Below, one piece after another: positions 26,102 through 50,520 of a stretch of DNA of 64,000 bases. Within the stretch, counting starts at the first letter, position 1. The number at the start of each line of letters is the position of its first letter. The position numbers and the translations under genes were made by a program. The stretch is taken from the NCBI RefSeq assembly GCF_013376095.1, contig NZ_JAAMFN010000015.1, positions 1 through 64,000 of the forward strand. The letters are read 5' to 3'. This stretch comes from Arthrobacter sp. SDTb3-6. GTDB lineage: Bacteria; Actinomycetota; Actinomycetes; Actinomycetales; Micrococcaceae. Below the pieces are notes generated by a model, which had not been told where the DNA came from, did not search any database, and was given only the letters and a program-made list of their open reading frames with translations.

Positions 26102-29100
26102 TTATTCGGCCAAGGCCTTCGACAGTGCCACGCGGACCCGCTTTTCCGAGACCGAATACGCCGTGCCCAGCTCCACGGCGAACAGGCTGACGCGCAGTTC
26201 CTCCAACATCCAGCGCACGTGCTCCAGCCCAGCCGTTGACCGCTGGCCGGGCAGCAGGGCGGCCACGGCGTCGTCGTACTCGTCTTCCAGCCGCTGCACG
26301 GCGGCCATCGACTGACCGTCCCGGGCCACATTCGAGGGCAGCTTCTCCAGCCGGCGCTCAATCGCGGCCAGGTAGCGCGGCAGCTGGCTGAGCTGGGCGA
26401 AGCCGGTCTTGGCCACAAAACCGGGATAGACCAGCAGTTCCAGCTGCTGCCTGATGTCGTTGAGGGCACTGATCAGCGGCAGGCTGTTGCTGGCCCGCAG
26501 CGCCTTGTCGATCCGCAGCTTCGACGCCAGCACGCGTTCGACGACGGCCGTCACCGTGAACACCGTGTCAATGAGCTCGGCCCGGACCGTTTCATACAGG
26601 GCATCAAACGCGTTCCGGTCCCAGGGCAGGGCCGCGGGTGTGAGCTTGTCGATGGTGGCCAGCGTGCAGTCGGCGATCAGCTCCGCCACCGAGCCGTGCG
26701 GGTTTTGGCTGAACGTGAGCTTTTCGGTGTTGCTCAGGTGCTCGAGCACGTACCGGTCGGGGGAGGGCACCCGCAGGGCGAGGAGCCTGATGACGCCGCC
26801 ACGCATGGCGGATTCCTGCGCATCACGGCGCTGGAACACGCGCAGTCCGGCCGTGGCGCCCTCGTCCACCAGGGCCGGGTAACCCGTCACGGTGTGCCCG
26901 GAGACCAGCCGCTTCACCTCGCGCGGCAGCGTGCCCACGCTCCACTCGGTGAGCCCGGTGCGCTCGGCAATGCCCTCTGGTCCGCGGGTGTCACCGGTCG
27001 AGCTTGTCGAGACACCTGGTCTCGACGGGTCCGGTCCCCGGGTGCCGCCCGACCCCCGGGGCGTGACGGTCTTCGGCGTGGCCCCGAGTTGTTCGGCAAT
27101 GGCCCGGCGCGTGGCGCCGGCCAGTCGTGACTGCAGCGCCGGGAGGTCCTGGCCATCTTCGAGGATGCGGCCGTTCTTGTCCACCACGGAGAACGTCATG
27201 CGCAGGTGGGAGGGCACGGCGTCCCAGTTCCACGACCCCGGCGGGATGATGTGCCCCTTGATCCTGCGCAGGGCCAGTTCCAGCGACGGCTCCAGCGCGT
27301 CCACGGCAGGGTCGAAGTCGGCGGCCAGGGCCGCGGCCGCCTGCCGTCCCACGTCCGGGGCGGGGATGAAGTTCTTGCGCACGGCCTTGGGCAGCGACTT
27401 GATCAGCGCCGTCACCAGCTCCGCGCGCAGCCCGGGGATCTGCCACCGGAACGGGGCCTCGTGCAGCTGGTTCAAAAACAACAGCGGCACCTGCACGGTC
27501 ACGCCGTCGGACGGGTTGGGTGCGGAACCCGGCGCGGTCGGGTGGAACTCGTAGGAGAGCGGCAGCTCAAACTCGCCCTCGGTCCAGGTCTTCGGGAACG
27601 CGGCCCCGTCGAGCTCGGGCTCCTCGGCCATGACCACGTGCGCGTCGAAGTCCAGCAGCGAAGGGTTCTTGTGCCGGGCGTCCTTCCACCACTTGTCAAA
27701 GTGCCGCTCGGAGACCACGCCGGGCCCCACCCGCTCGTCGTAAAACTCAAAGAGTGCCTCGTCGTCCACGCGCAGGTCGCGGCGCCGCATGCGGGTTTCC
27801 AGCTCCTCCACTTCGGCGAGCAGGGCCTGGTTGCGGTGGAAGAACTTGTGGTTGGTGTGCCAGTCTCCCTCCACCAGGGCGTGCCGGATGAACAGCTCCC
27901 GGCTCAATTCCGGGTCGATACGTCCGTAGTGGACGCGGCGGTCGGGCACGATCGGCACGCCGTACAGGGTGACCTTCTCATGTGCCATGACCGAGCCCAT
28001 CTTCTTGGACCAGTGCGGCTCGGAGTAGCTGCGCTTCACCAGGTCCGGGGCCACCTCCTCGGCCCACAGGGGATCGAACTTGGCGGCCACGCGGGCCCAC
28101 AGCCGCGACGTTTCCACGAGTTCGGCGGCCATGACCCAGTCCGGCGACTTCTTGAACAGCGCCGAGCCCGGGAACACCATGAACTTGGTCCCGCGCGCGC
28201 CGGCATACTCGCGCTTGCGCGCATCATAGAGGCCGATGTGGCTGAGCAGCCCCGTCAGCAGGGACATGTGGATGGCGTCGTGGTTGGCCACCGGGTCAAT
28301 GCCGCTGCCGGAGACCTTGATGCCCAGCGGCTTGCCCATCTGCTTGAGCTGGGTGAACAAATCCTGCCATTCACGCACGCGCAGGTAGTTGATGAACTCG
28401 GCCTTGCACAACCTGCGGAACGCACTGGAGGACAGCTCCGCCTGCTTCTCCTTGATGTAGCGCCACAGGTTCAAAAAGCCCGTGAAATCGGAATTCGCAT
28501 CCACAAAGCGCTTGTGCTTTTCGGCGGCGAGCTGCTGCTTGTTTGTGCCGTCCCCCTGGGGGCGCTCACGCGGGTCCTGGATGGTCAGCGCGGCTGCGAG
28601 CACCATGACCTCCGCGGCCACGCCGCGTTTCGCGGCTTCCACGATCATCCGTCCCAGCCGCGGATCCACCGGAAGCTGGGAGAGCTGGCGTCCGACGCCG
28701 GTGATCCCGCCTTGGGCGTTCACCGCGCCCAGCTCGCGCAGCAGGGTCACGCCGTCGGTGATGGCCCGGGAGTCCGGTGGCTGCACAAACGGGAACTTCT
28801 CCACGTCCCTGGGTCCCTTTGCCACGCCCATGGCAGCCATCTGGAGGATGACGGCGGCCAGGTTGGTGCGCAGGATCTCGGGGTCCGTGAACTCGCTGCG
28901 GGCGTCGAAATCCTCCTCCGAGTACAGCCGGATGCAGATGCCGTCGGACACGCGGCCGCAGCGGCCCGAACGTTGGTTCGCACTTGCCTGGGACACGCGC
29001 TCGATGGGCAGGCGCTGCACCTTGGTCCGATGCGAATACCGGGAGATGCGGGCCGTGCCGGGGTCAATCACATACTTGATGCCCGGCACCGTCAGCGACG

Positions 29101-46438: not shown

Positions 46439-46726
46439 GCGGCCCAAGATTGATGCCACCCCTTCACCGTGACGTTCCATCTGGGCCGGCCGGTAGATCG
46501 AATCAACAATTGGCAGCCGCCTCGTTTATTCACGAATTGGTCTTTTTACAGGTTGATTCAGGGGTGAACACCCCCAATCCCGCACTTCCAAAAGATTTCG
46601 CAAGTGCGAATTGGAACCTCAGCTGTTTTTCTTAGCCCCGGCCTGTGCGGCAGCGGCAGGACGGCTGACACTAATCATCGCGGCCTCGCTCCAAGGGGCT
46701 CGCTTTTCGAGGGGGAAGGATCCTTC
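46439..46726 (+). promoter_or_regulatory. Hairpin-rich rho leader
   Basis: The gap between thrB and rho holds a GGGGTGAACACCCC hairpin (46561-46574) that may terminate thrB. Next, CGCACTT (46581-46587) pairs with AAGTGCG (46602-46608). The same bases can alternatively form TTCGCA-AG-TGCGAA (46597-46610), so the two stems exclude each other. T5 follows at 46625-46629. Rho genes in other bacteria are autoregulated through their leaders; this may be an equivalent. No promoter is certain. Confidence 0.4.
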
Positions 46727-48916
46727 GTGACAGAAACCATGACTCCAGCTGCCGTCAACCAGGCAGCTGAGTTGGACGACACCGCCAAATCCACAGCAAC
46801 GGCCAAGCCGGCCGGCCTGGCGGGCCTGAAGCTGGCCCAGCTGCAGGCACTCGCCGGCCAGCTCGGCATTACCGGCGGGTCCCGGATGCGCAAGGGAGAC
46901 CTGGTTGCCGCCATTTCGGCCCACCAGCGCGGTTCGTCCGTGGCTGACCGCCCGGTGCGCACGGCCAAGGACGACGGCGCAGCCGCCGCACCCGCCAAGC
47001 GGGCACCCCGCAGCAGCAAGGACAGCTCCGCTGCCGCAGCCGAAGCTCCCGCAGCCCCGGCCGAGTCCGCCCCGGAAGAGCGCCCGGCCCGCGGCCGCCG
47101 CAGCCGCCGGGCAGCCAGCAGCGACGGCATCATCACCACCGGTGACGCCACAGTGCAGACCGCCGCCGTGGAAGCCCCGGCGGCCCCCGCCGCGGAAGGC
47201 GCGCACGGCGACCAGGCACAGGCAGCCGAACAGGGCGCCGACGGCGAGGTCCGCCGCCAGCCCCGTACCCGCAACCGCCGCGCACAAGGCGGCGGACGCG
47301 ACGCGGCCACCCCACAGGACGCCTCCGCGGAACCGAAGACGGAAACGGCTGCACCCCAGGCCGACGCCGGCCAGGGCGCGCAGCACCAAGGCGAGCACGC
47401 TGCTGCCGGCGAGAACGGCGAGGGTTCCGAGCGTCACGAGAAGAACGACCGCAACAACCGCCGCAACCAGCGCAACCAGCGCAACAACGACCGCCAGGGC
47501 ACCGGACAGCCGTCCACTGAGCGTTCGTCCAACACTGAGCGTTCGTCCAACGGCGGCAACGATGACGAAGACGGATCGCGCAACAACCGCAACCGCCGCA
47601 ACCGCCGCGACCGCAACGATTCCTCCGACCGCAACGACCGGGGCGGAAACAGCCGCAACGACCGCAACGACCGCTTCCGCGACCGCAACGAGCGCCGCCG
47701 CGGACGCAACGCCGGTCCGGACTTTGACGACACCGAGGTGACCGAGGACGACGTCCTGCTGCCCGTGGCCGGCATCCTGGACATCCTGGACAACTACGCC
47801 TTTGTCCGGACCTCCGGCTACCTGCCCGGCTCCAACGACGTCTACGTCTCCCTCTCGCAGGTGAAGAAGTACAACCTGCGCAAGGGCGACGCCGTCGTCG
47901 GCGCCATCCGCGCCCCCCGTGACGGCGAGGACCGCAGCCAGGGCCAGAGCGCCCGCCAGAAGTTCAACGCCCTGGTGCGCGTCACCAGCGTCAACGGCAA
48001 GAACCCGGACGAGCTCAAGGACCGCGTTGAATTTGCCAAGCTGGTCCCGCTGTACCCGTCCGAGCGCCTGCGCCTGGAGACGGACCCCAAGAAGATCGGC
48101 CCGCGCGTCATTGACCTGGTGGCCCCGATCGGCAAGGGCCAGCGCGGCCTGATCGTCTCCCCGCCCAAGGCTGGAAAGACGCTGATCCTGCAGTCGATCG
48201 CGAACGCCATCACCACCAACAACCCTGAGGTCCACCTCATGATGGTGCTGGTTGACGAACGCCCAGAAGAAGTCACCGACATGCAGCGCACCGTCAAGGG
48301 TGAGGTCATCGCCTCCACCTTCGACCGCCCCGCAGACGACCACACGCAGGTGGCTGAACTCTCCATCGAGCGTGCCAAGCGCCTCGTGGAGATGGGCATG
48401 GATGTGGTGGTCCTGTTGGATTCCATGACCCGCCTGGGCCGTGCCTACAACAACTCCGCACCGTCCTCCGGACGCATCCTCTCCGGTGGTGTGGATTCCG
48501 CTGCACTGTACCCGCCGAAGCGCTTCTTCGGTGCGGCCCGCAACATCGAAAACGGCGGCTCGCTGACCATCCTGGCAACGGCCCTGGTGGAAACCGGGTC
48601 CAAGGCCGACGAGGTCATCTTCGAAGAGTTCAAGGGCACGGGCAACATGGAACTGCGCCTGTCGCGCCAGCTGGCCGACAAGCGCATCTTCCCGGCTGTT
48701 GACGTCAACGCCTCGGGTACCCGACGCGAAGAAAACCTGCTCTCCCCGGAAGAGGTCAAGATCATGTGGCGCCTGCGCCGCGTCCTCTCCGGCCTGGAAA
48801 TGCAGCAGTCGCTTGAACTGCTGACCTCCAAGATCCGTGAGACGCAGTCCAACGTCGAGTTCCTCATGCAGATCCAGAAGACCACCCTGGGATCCAAGGC
48901 CGAGCACGACAAGTAG
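46727..48916 (+). CDS. rho: Transcription termination factor Rho
   Basis: A 729-residue Rho, far longer than the E. coli 419 residues because of a 330-residue low-complexity N-terminal region rich in Ala/Pro then Arg/Asn/Asp (many NRRNRR and NDRN blocks), typical of actinobacteria. The Rho N-terminal helical domain occurs at about 25-70 (LAGLKLAQLQALAGQLGITGGSRMRKGDLVAAI). The RNA-binding domain is at about 340-420, Walker A PPKAGKT near 479, and the R-loop/Q-loop ATPase core follows. The GTG start is chosen because GGGGGAAGGA lies 6 bp upstream. Confidence 0.95.
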   Translation: MTETMTPAAVNQAAELDDTAKSTATAKPAGLAGLKLAQLQALAGQLGITGGSRMRKGDLVAAISAHQRGSSVADRPVRTAKDDGAAAAPAKRAPRSSKDSSAAAAEAPAAPAESAPEERPARGRRSRRAASSDGIITTGDATVQTAAVEAPAAPAAEGAHGDQAQAAEQGADGEVRRQPRTRNRRAQGGGRDAATPQDASAEPKTETAAPQADAGQGAQHQGEHAAAGENGEGSERHEKNDRNNRRNQRNQRNNDRQGTGQPSTERSSNTERSSNGGNDDEDGSRNNRNRRNRRDRNDSSDRNDRGGNSRNDRNDRFRDRNERRRGRNAGPDFDDTEVTEDDVLLPVAGILDILDNYAFVRTSGYLPGSNDVYVSLSQVKKYNLRKGDAVVGAIRAPRDGEDRSQGQSARQKFNALVRVTSVNGKNPDELKDRVEFAKLVPLYPSERLRLETDPKKIGPRVIDLVAPIGKGQRGLIVSPPKAGKTLILQSIANAITTNNPEVHLMMVLVDERPEEVTDMQRTVKGEVIASTFDRPADDHTQVAELSIERAKRLVEMGMDVVVLLDSMTRLGRAYNNSAPSSGRILSGGVDSAALYPPKRFFGAARNIENGGSLTILATALVETGSKADEVIFEEFKGTGNMELRLSRQLADKRIFPAVDVNASGTRREENLLSPEEVKIMWRLRRVLSGLEMQQSLELLTSKIRETQSNVEFLMQIQKTTLGSKAEHDK

Positions 48917-48925
48917 CTGAGTACA

Positions 48926-48964
48926 AGGGGCGGGACCGGACATTCGTGTCCGGCCCGCCCCTTC
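48926..48964 (+). terminator. Terminator hairpin of rho
   Basis: AAGGGGCGGG-CCGGACA and TGTCCGG-CCCGCCCCTT form a long stem (one bulged base) with loop TTCG, 10 bp after the rho stop. A short T-stretch is lacking, but the stability and place make it a convincing 3' end. Confidence 0.75.
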
Positions 48965-48978
48965 GCGTTGCGCGGCCG

Positions 48979-49017
48979 TCAAGCCTGTCGGGACGCGGTG
49001 GTCGAGCCTGTCGAGAG
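48979..49017. repeat. GTCGAG-type dispersed repeats after rho
   Basis: GTCAAGCCTGTCGGGAC (48979-48995) and GGTCGAGCCTGTCGAGA (48999-49015) are two tandemly placed copies of the same short partly palindromic repeat found inside hrpA. They abut the large inverted-repeat element. Confidence 0.7.
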
Positions 49018-49024
49018 CCTGGGC

Positions 49025-49359
49025 GCCGTGGTCCGGTCCGGCGGCGGAGCGGCATTCCCTCGGTCGCTATCCGACTGACGGCCGCGGGCGGCCTTACAGT
49101 CTCCTTTACGCGACCTACGGAAACACCGCTCCACCACCTGCGCGGCAGGCCCACCAGCTGGCCCAAGGGCACTTCGTGTCCATGGGCCCAGCGCGCCGGG
49201 TGCCCGTCCGGACAATTCAGCAAGGGCGACGGAGAGGCCAAGGCGGGGGAGCCGATGTTTTTGTAGTCCGGCGTAAAGGAGACCCGAAGGCCGCCCGCGG
49301 CCGAAGGGGCGGATAGCCGGACGGGAAAACGTCGGGCCGCCGCCGGACCGGGCCACGGG
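49025..49359. repeat. Large imperfect inverted-repeat element between rho and prfA
   Basis: The left arm (about 49025-49140) and right arm (about 49238-49359) are complementary over most of 115 bp, flanking a centre of about 100 bp. Diagnostic paired blocks are GGTCCGGCGGCGG with CCGCCGCCGGACC, CTATCCG with CGGATAG, GGCCGCGGGCGGCCTT with AAGGCCGCCCGCGGCC, and GTCTCCTTTACGC with GCGTAAAGGAGAC. No convincing gene lies within it. A 14-bp direct repeat (GGACCGGGCCACGG) occurs twice at the right end. It looks like a MITE-type or two-copy repeat insertion; the 530-bp gap 48917-49446 contains only this, the rho terminator and the prfA promoter. Confidence 0.85.
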
Positions 49360-49414
49360 GACCGGGCCACGGGCGGCCGGGCCAGGGCGGCCGGGTACGG
49401 ACAGCAGAAGTAAT

Positions 49415-49447
49415 TAGACTTGACTTACGTCGAGAGAGGTTTTGAAA
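49415..49447 (+). promoter_or_regulatory. prfA promoter -10 and ribosome site
   Basis: TAGACT (49415-49420) resembles an actinobacterial -10, followed by GAGAGAGG (about 49432-49439), 7 bp before the ATG at 49447. The -35 would fall in the GC-rich edge of the inverted-repeat element and is not recognisable. Confidence 0.4.
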
Positions 49448-50520
49448 TGTTTGAATCCATCCACGGGCTGCTTGATGAGCATGCCGAACTGCAGCAGCGG
49501 CTCAGCGACCCCGCCGTCCATGCCGACCAGTCGCTGGCGCGCAGGTTGGGACGCCGGTACGCGGAGTTGAGCGGCGTGGTGGAGGGATACCACCAGGTGG
49601 AACAGCTCACCGGCGATCTTGAGGCGGCCAGGGAAATGGCGGCCGAAGACCCGGACTTTGCTGCCGAGGTGCCCGATCTTGAGAGCCAGCTCGCCTCAGC
49701 GCAGGAAAAGTTGCGCCGGCTGCTGATCCCGCGCGACCCCGACGATGCCCGGGACGTGATCCTGGAGGTCAAGGCCGGGGAGGGTGGCGACGAGGCCGCC
49801 CTGTTCGCGGCGGACCTGGTCCGGATGTACACGCGGTATGCGGATTCACGCGGGTGGAAGACGGAAGTCATCTCCTCCACGGAGTCCGACCTCGGCGGAT
49901 ACAAGGACATTTCCATTGCCGTCAAGGGCCGCTCCAATGATCCCGCCGAGGGCGTGTATGCACGCCTGAAGTTTGAAGGCGGCGTCCATCGCGTGCAGCG
50001 GGTGCCGGCCACGGAATCCCAGGGACGCATCCACACCTCTGCCGCCGGGGTCCTGGTGCTGCCGGAGGTCGATGAACCCGAAGAGGTGGACATCAACCAG
50101 AACGACCTCAAGATTGATGTTTACCGTTCTTCAGGCCCTGGCGGGCAGTCCGTGAACACCACCGACTCCGCAGTGCGCATCACGCACCTTCCCACGGGGA
50201 TCGTGGTGGCCATGCAGAACGAGAAGTCGCAGCTGCAAAACCGCGAGGCCGGCATGCGCGTGCTCCGTGCGCGCATCCTGGCCCACCAGCAGGCCATCAT
50301 CGACGCCGAGAACTCGGCCGTGCGCAAGTCGCAGATCCGCACCATGGACCGCTCTGAGCGCATCCGCACCTACAACTACCCGGAAAACCGGATCGCCGAC
50401 CACCGCACCGGCTACAAGGCCTATAACCTGGACGCCGTCATGAACGGCGACCTTGAAGCCGTGGTGCAGTCGGCCATCGAGATGGATGAGCAGCACCGGC
50501 TGGACGCCCTGGGTGACTGA
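49447..50520 (+). CDS. prfA: Peptide chain release factor 1
   Basis: A 357-residue RF1 for UAA/UAG. The PxT-type codon-reading motif lies in [16 protein letters not shown] and the GGQ motif is at 232-234 in [23 protein letters not shown] is preferred to a TTG 27 bp upstream because of the GAGAGAGG site. Its end overlaps prmC by 8 bp, which fits PrmC methylating this GGQ glutamine. Confidence 0.95.

What the first reader, a model, noticed from the sequence alone, without database searches (positions are those of the whole stretch)
49025..49359. 335-bp giant imperfect hairpin element between rho and prfA
Arms of roughly 115 bp pair across a 100-bp centre with repeated short mismatches, as expected for two diverged inverted copies. 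It contains no gene, is flanked by GTCGAG repeats and a 14-bp direct repeat, and separates two essential genes. It could be a non-autonomous mobile element (MITE), a large REP/BIME-like unit, or a structured RNA. I know of no named family that matches.
Basis: seen in the sequence. Interest (0 to 1): 0.65.

Follow-up and report, generated by a model that had tools for sequence, protein, structure and literature searches.

The report
Paired gene-end hairpin repeat in Arthrobacter
The giant hairpin between two essential genes is two facing copies of a roughly 100-base folding DNA repeat that is scattered through Arthrobacter genomes and, wherever it could be placed, lies after the end of a gene, where it may serve as, or shelter beside, a stop signal for transcription.

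Summary
The hairpin is real (335 nt, -232 kcal/mol, z -11.8). It is two inverted copies (about 49037-49139 + and 49242-49347 -) of a ~103-bp repeat that itself folds into a bulged hairpin. The own genome has nine matches at E<1e-4; 23 of 23 genomes of the genus, own included, have at least one. Differently written hairpins of the same plan occur in other genera of the family. Base pairs covary. Of 108 placed copy groups none lies between divergent genes, against 63 of 178 control gaps. Single copies tend to be sense to the gene they follow. All 17 inverted doublets found face the same way. No Rfam match, no target-site duplication and, in the own genome, no Y1 (RAYT-type) transposase were found. 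At three gene ends compared across species, other hairpin families take the same place. Best reading: a family of dispersed palindromic repeats like REP/BIME, living at gene 3' ends and likely acting as a terminator-like or end-protecting hairpin. How it spreads and whether it terminates transcription are untested.

The parts
49037..49139 (+). Unit w1: ~103-bp hairpin repeat, C-type outer stem (CATTCCC/GGAAA), forward orientation
   Evidence: model hit 49044-49132, 110.8 bits (w1 was also in the model's training set); unit boundary about 7 nt outside the hit, from 142 copies
49242..49347 (-). Unit w2: second copy, inverted, T-type outer stem (GTTTTCC/AAAAAC)
   Evidence: model hit 49249-49340 on the minus strand, 82.1 bits (also in the training set)
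49140..49241 (.). Spacer between the two units, with a small hairpin of its own (about 49157-49191); spacers of other doublets are not alike in general
49025..49359 (.). Giant hairpin formed by pairing of w1 with w2
   Evidence: z -11.8
49080..49093 (+). Conserved apical hairpin of w1 (GGCCGCGGGCGGCC)
   Evidence: helix 5, 99.0% of cells paired over 98 distinct rows
48971..49018 (+). Adjacent GGTCGAGCCTGTCGAGACC-type repeat (a different repeat)
49345..49372 (.). 14-bp tandem duplication at the right edge; not a target-site duplication
46604..48916 (+). rho (true start not determined)
   Evidence: ORF, Pfam
49447..50520 (+). prfA
   Evidence: ORF (start taken at the internal ATG), Pfam
48925..48963 (+). 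rho's own terminator-like hairpin, distinct from the element
   Evidence: read from the sequence; same kind of hairpin in several relatives without the element

Best explanation
The feature is an inverted doublet of a ~103-bp dispersed intergenic palindromic repeat of Arthrobacter. Each unit folds into a hairpin: variable but matching outer arms, an asymmetric loop, a 6-7 bp stem, a conserved internal loop (CTATCCG against CTCCTTTAC) and a GGCCG tip. Two units facing each other fold into the giant hairpin. SHOWN: many copies across the genus, covarying stems, sharp unit ends, no copy between divergent genes among those placed, orientation preferentially sense to the gene it follows, one doublet arrangement, and other hairpin families at the same gene ends in other species. 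INFERRED: when the preceding gene is transcribed the unit forms a strong 3' hairpin that stops or insulates transcription and/or shields the mRNA end. Between rho and prfA, where rho already has its own terminator-like hairpin, it would be a second barrier or a neutral lodger. INFERRED: copies spread as a non-autonomous repeat by an unidentified enzyme or by recombination among copies, and stay where they help or do least harm. The confidence given is for the repeat-family reading with a gene-end role as the likelier option; the first rival shares the repeat reading, so the odds overlap.
For: Dispersed copies. Covariation: 94 double-changed cells against 33.8 in shuffles and at most 28 in slid controls on the MAFFT alignment; 329 against 109.7 and at most 80 on the model-fitted one. 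Position: 69 tandem, 39 convergent, 0 divergent, 15 of 123 not placed; control gaps 99/16/63 (Fisher 7.6e-16). In tandem gaps the median distance is 51 nt to the upstream stop and 133 nt to the next start. Orientation of singles: sense 42 against 16 in tandem gaps, 26 against 9 relative to the nearer gene in convergent gaps. At 135 gene ends the stop-to-unit stretch has a median of 21 nt and 27% hold another strong hairpin; with the unit 92% do; control ends 69%, shuffled 50%. T is enriched (0.30, 0.33, 0.26) at three positions just after the forward stem, not after the reverse one. Same-slot replacement.
Against: No transcription data. The T-run is weak. rho has its own terminator-like hairpin next to this copy. 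G.T and A.C mispairs are balanced overall, and the forward strand folds better than the reverse as RNA in only 18 of 122 copies, so RNA-level selection on the forward strand is not shown. Absence from divergent gaps could be selection against promoter damage alone. Between G008 and G009, in the seven of eight shared copies that aligned, changes in the units look mostly single, with no clear compensatory pair (judged by eye). Genes were called by my own GC-frame script; orthologous copies in different species are not independent, so the p-values are too small by an unknown factor.
Confidence: 0.62

Rival explanations
1. A purely parasitic REP-like repeat with no function: it spreads by a lost, unknown or trans-acting transposase and survives at gene 3' ends because insertion elsewhere is harmful.
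For: Match number varies from 0 to 24 per congeneric genome (1 to 11, capped). GTAG at the foot of the inner stem on the reverse strand in 110 of 139 copies, as in GTAG REPs (passages of PMC6006769 and PMC3733652). Inverted doublets, like REPINs. Tandem array in A. cryoconiti.
Against: No Y1 transposase (PF01797) match in the own genome (draft, 99.97% complete) and in 20 of the other 22 congeners; the Y1 loci fetched carry no unit. The sense bias and repeated hairpin occupancy of the same gene ends suggest more than tolerance.
Confidence: 0.4
2. The conserved core was inserted into the loops of pre-existing terminator hairpins, so the variable outer arms belong to the target and not to the element.
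For: In a sister family (core CTCGCGGGCAGTAAGATTTC...GAAATCCATCCCCGCTCC) the core hardly varies while outer arms differ between many copies and still look complementary (15 distinct sequences printed, some orthologous or with partly shared arms, judged by eye). Outer arms of the window's family match their own partner better than shuffled partners (14.9 against 12.0 of 25).
Against: In the window's family the arms share a consensus that ends sharply 7 nt beyond the model. At rho-prfA the terminator-like hairpin is intact beside the element, and relatives such as G003 and G011 have it without a second long hairpin. Gene ends without any unit at the GNAT slot (G001, G004, G015, G022) show no matching bare stem by eye, though these relatives are distant.
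Confidence: 0.15
3. An independent structured RNA (small RNA or cis-regulator of prfA).
For: Strong covariation; in helix 3 G.T exceeds A.C (31 and 9), mostly from one column pair.
Against: Copies follow different genes, no Rfam match near a gathering score, no overall wobble bias, and 18 of 23 genomes show no unit, or only a possible remnant (G005), at rho-prfA (by eye).
Confidence: 0.05
4. Random palindromic drift at one locus.
For: None found.
Against: z -11.8 and copies elsewhere in the genome and genus.
Confidence: 0.01

Closest known systems
REP / BIME / REPIN (GTAG-tagged repetitive extragenic palindromes with RAYT transposases)
   Same: Dispersed imperfect palindromes with mid-stem bulges between genes, often as inverted doublets; GTAG at the foot of the inner stem in 110 of 139 copies.
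   Different: About 103 bp with a long outer stem outside GTAG (REPs are given as 20-40 bp in PMC3733652); no Y1 transposase match in the own genome; GTAG not seen by eye at that place in the related types of other genera.
CGTC-tagged REPs (PMC3733652, passages)
   Same: Palindromic repeats that apparently lack a dedicated transposase.
   Different: A CGTC tag was not tested here; 'Arthrobacter' has 0 occurrences in that paper's main text.
ERIC (enterobacterial repetitive intergenic consensus; recalled)
   Same: Intergenic imperfect palindrome of about 100-130 bp without a gene of its own.
   Different: Different lineage; the comparison is from memory only.
Intrinsic transcription terminators
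   Same: Strong hairpin soon after stop codons.
   Different: A dispersed conserved sequence with internal loops and only a weak T-run.
MITE
   Same: Short, gene-free, inverted arms, many copies.
   Different: No target-site duplication beyond chance; no parent transposon recognised, but only PF01797 was searched.

Membership tests
REP/BIME (RAYT-associated) | Dispersed intergenic palindrome in many copies | tested here: met
REP/BIME (RAYT-associated) | GT[AG]G tetranucleotide 0-2 nt 5' of the stem | tested here: inconclusive
   GTAG foot in 110 of 139 copies of the genus family, but inside a longer outer stem, and not seen by eye in the types of other genera
REP/BIME (RAYT-associated) | Cognate RAYT (Y1 transposase) gene in the genome, flanked by the repeat | tested here: not met
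   PF01797 without a match in the own genome; matches in 2 of 22 congeners, and those loci carry no unit. [quoted passage not shown]
MITE | Target-site duplication | tested here: not met
   141 copies, direct repeats hugging the ends as in shuffles apart from a few long ones, some of them tandem-array copies
MITE | Parent autonomous transposon with the same ends | not tested
   no systematic search for transposases other than PF01797
Intrinsic terminator | GC-rich hairpin shortly downstream of a stop codon | tested here: met
   for the window copy rho's own hairpin comes first
Intrinsic terminator | U-tract after the stem | tested here: inconclusive
   T 0.30, 0.33, 0.26 at positions 8-10 after the model end, forward strand only
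Intrinsic terminator | RNA 3' ends at the site | not testable with these tools
   needs RNA data
Known RNA family (Rfam 15) | Match at gathering score | tested here: not met
   window 48500-49900; nine loci

The most novel reading that the evidence does not exclude
The Micrococcaceae-like family around this genus carries a superfamily of mobile gene-end hairpins: modules of one architecture (variable self-matching outer stem, conserved internal loops, GGCCG or similar tip) that differ in sequence between genera and replace one another at the same gene ends, so that transcription-stop or mRNA-end signals are supplied by repeats that spread without a RAYT transposase.
Probability: 0.3. Interest if true: 0.72.

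Novelty: new variant of a known kind. Interest (0 to 1): 0.5.

Why it matters
If true, gene ends in this group are dressed by interchangeable repeats, which would tie genome-wide repeat spread to transcription termination and offers many natural comparisons (same gene end with one hairpin, another, or none). It also poses a clear question: what moves a GTAG-footed palindrome where no RAYT is found?

Tried and rejected
Rfam: two sub-threshold hits, lying over the rho terminator-like hairpin and not the element, and two sub-threshold microRNA hits taken as chance. RAYT link: tested, not met. Target-site duplication: none beyond chance overall. Clean empty sites: the slots compared are too diverged to fix insertion boundaries (the output was cut and I did not see all its cases). 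In the one close pair, eight of nine G008 copies have a G009 counterpart at the same site; for the ninth the G009 contigs end at or near the element, so it is unresolved. Replication strand as cause of the orientation bias: leading 42, lagging 25 if the origin is at coordinate 1, but GC skew did not bear that assumption out: inconclusive. Conserved doublet spacer: not found in general. RNA-strand test by wobble pairs: no overall bias, an excess in helix 3 only. Exact apical motif CTCGGCCGCNGGCGGCCTC: in 30 of 295 family genomes, at most two per genome, so it does not by itself mark repeat families. A kink-turn reading of the internal loop was considered and dropped as unsupported. Outlying pattern hits: the Spirochaetes MAG L099 is not confirmed by the model; the Sporosarcina contig L068 is (82.4 bits), its 8 kb being 67% GC, high for that genus as I recall, so probably contamination. 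Plasmids and phages: one Arthrobacter plasmid, plus one weak phage match to the left flank. Literature (held library only): searches listed no paper; one search listed two, judged irrelevant from the listing; one search listed three, of which I saw passages of PMC6006769; PMC3733652, found through its reference list, was seen in passages.

Full report
The observation. The stretch 49025-49359 folds from end to end at -232.1 kcal/mol, against -161.3 (sd 6.0) for 100 dinucleotide shuffles, none as low. The long inverted repeats are as described. The neighbours are rho and prfA by Pfam domains. The 14-bp direct repeat is a tandem duplication on one side only and the GTCGAG repeat lies on the left only, so neither is a target-site duplication.

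What it is made of. A search of the own genome with the region found other places that match one arm. Aligned, they show that each arm of the giant hairpin is one copy of a repeat unit that is itself a hairpin in most of the nine copies folded (three of the nine had z above -1 when folded alone). A covariance model (R1; built from 33 full-length copies, divergent ones left out, the window's two included) gives nine matches at E<1e-4 in the own genome, the ninth weak at 1.4e-5, and two in the window, 49044-49132 on + and 49249-49340 on -. Base composition outside 142 copies shows the consensus ending about 7 nt beyond the model on both sides, which puts the unit at roughly 103 bp. The giant hairpin is therefore an inverted doublet.

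Conserved fold. On the MAFFT alignment of 33 copies, 94 cells have changes on both sides that keep the pair, against 33.8 in shuffles and at most 28 with partners slid; I drew the structure from these sequences. On 98 distinct model-fitted rows the numbers are 329, 109.7 and 80, with 90.6% of cells paired. The apical GGCCG stem hardly varies. The outer arms vary and match their own partner better (14.9 of 25) than shuffled partners (12.0) (136 copies). G.T and A.C mispairs on the forward strand are about equal overall (98 and 82); helix 3 has 31 and 9, of which 23 come from one column pair, while a stricter parse of the same helix gave 6 and 11. The forward strand folds better than the reverse as RNA in only 18 of 122 copies. 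RNA-type selection on one strand is thus not shown.

Distribution. With the DNA of one unit, 18 of 38 relatives matched, all 18 in the own genus (18 of 23). With the model, 23 of 23 genomes of the genus, own included, and 71 of 395 genomes of the family in 6 of 32 genera matched at E<=0.001 (stricter filters, at most 11 candidates scored per genome). The only match of G016 (1.8e-4) is of the sister type described below. An exact-pattern scan of named genomes gave 45 stretches, 43 titled Arthrobacter; the model confirms 44 of 45, all but the Spirochaetes one. The name of the own genome is not given; Arthrobacter is inferred from these congeners and from the contig length of G006, which equals that of a plasmid of Arthrobacter sp. 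ERGS1:01. In other genera the matches are weak and belong to differently written hairpins with the same plan: long variable outer stem, internal loops, GGCCG tip. One such type is itself repeated: 9 of 12 genomes searched match, all nine of that genus, with 2 to 12 matches each, some places being counted on both strands; some of its copies have another tip. I take these as related in architecture; common descent is not proved.

Where it sits. I placed 123 groups of copies against genes called by a script of mine (GC by codon position): 69 in tandem gaps, 39 convergent, 0 divergent, 10 at edges, 5 inside predicted genes. Gaps of 120-800 bp without a unit in the same loci were 99 tandem, 16 convergent, 63 divergent; Fisher p 7.6e-16. 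Other-genus copies: 28 tandem, 15 convergent, 0 divergent, 11 inside, 1 edge (L162, which looked coding, was dropped before that count). In tandem gaps the unit is nearer the upstream stop (median 51 nt) than the next start (133 nt). Single units are sense to the gene they follow in 42 of 58 tandem cases and sense to the nearer gene in 26 of 35 convergent cases. At 135 gene ends the stretch from stop to unit is short (median 21 nt) and holds another strong hairpin in 27%; including the unit 92% have one; control ends 69%, shuffled 50%. Orthologous copies in different species are not independent, so p-values are too small by an unknown factor.

Doublets. Of 20 close pairs 17 are inverted and all 17 face the same way, the sides that bear GTAG on the reverse strand turned inward; 3 are direct. 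Twelve of the 17 join a C-type with a T-type unit, as the window does; about half would be expected by chance, the types being about equally common. Spacers of the inverted pairs are 23-238 bp and not generally conserved.

The same gene end in other species (occupancy judged by eye from the printed stretches). Between rho and prfA of 23 genomes, units are seen in G000 (two), G013, G006, G019 and, degenerate, G015; G005 has what looks like a remnant; the rest have rho's hairpin alone or a different palindrome in its place. In a convergent gap, units occur in G008, G014, G011 and G013 (two); several others have unrelated long hairpins there, among them the GTCGAG repeat, and G003, G004, G018, G001 and G022 have none of comparable size (the stretch could not be cut out in three of 23). 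After a GNAT-like gene, units occur in G000, G006, G013, G003, G007, G014 and G011; a sister hairpin family is present in G002, G005, G008, G009, G012, G019 and G020, and beside the unit in G014 and G011; G001, G004, G015 and G022 have no long hairpin, and G018 could not be cut out. So hairpin occupancy of gene ends turns over, while in the close pair G008/G009 eight of nine copies are shared.

Mechanism. The position, the sense bias, the weak T enrichment after the forward stem and the slot replacement favour a role at the RNA 3' end: stopping or insulating transcription, or shielding the end. This is inference. For the window copy rho's own hairpin stands first, so a second barrier before prfA, or no role, are both possible. 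How the repeat spreads is unknown: there is no target-site duplication beyond chance and no Y1 transposase match in the own genome. GTAG at the inner foot in 110 of 139 copies recalls GTAG REPs, whose description and doublets I saw in passages of PMC6006769 and PMC3733652; [quoted passage not shown]

Verdict. A family of dispersed palindromic repeats without an Rfam 15 match and without a paper in the held library under my searches, comparable to REP/BIME but not shown to be one, with an unusually strict gene-end location. The window feature is one doublet of that family among 17 inverted doublets seen.

Noticed in passing
L161, L242, L247, L332, L072, L376-L385: Sister hairpin family with core CTCGCGGGCAGTAAGATTTC...GAAATCCATCCCCGCTCC; core nearly constant, outer arms variable between copies but complementary by eye.
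   Followed up: partly
L080, L087, L130, L199, L209, L215, L219, L234; L368, L381, L384: Variant units in which a second hairpin (GGGCCCACAAGCGCGAGGGACCCGCTGCGAGCTTGCGAGC...) is inserted on the 5' side of the internal stem.
   Followed up: partly
L377, L380: Sister-family copies with yet another hairpin inserted on the 3' side after the tip: nested hairpin insertion.
   Followed up: no
L057 and L098, A. cryoconiti contig: Six units in a tandem array with 111-bp period.
   Followed up: no
window 48994-49018 and 26996-27014: GGTCGAGCCTGTCGAGACC-type palindromic repeat, also seen beside several units in relatives.
   Followed up: partly
rho 3' ends of G001, G002, G005, G006, G008-G010, G012, G014, G016, G020, G022: rho's terminator-like hairpin replaced by another palindrome (..CCGCC..GTAGTGAAGG..CCTTCACTAC..GGCGG..TGCGTTAA and variants).
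   Followed up: no
L283, L288, L289: A further long palindrome family with GGGCGCATT/TATGCGC motifs at a convergent gene end.
   Followed up: no
L068: Contig filed as Sporosarcina beigongshangi bears a unit of this family at 67% GC: probable contamination.
   Followed up: partly
L140, L142, L143, L145, L146, L149, L150, L153, L154, L159, L166: In another genus a related hairpin lies within a predicted gene at similar offsets in 11 loci; could be an in-gene insertion or a false gene call.
   Followed up: no
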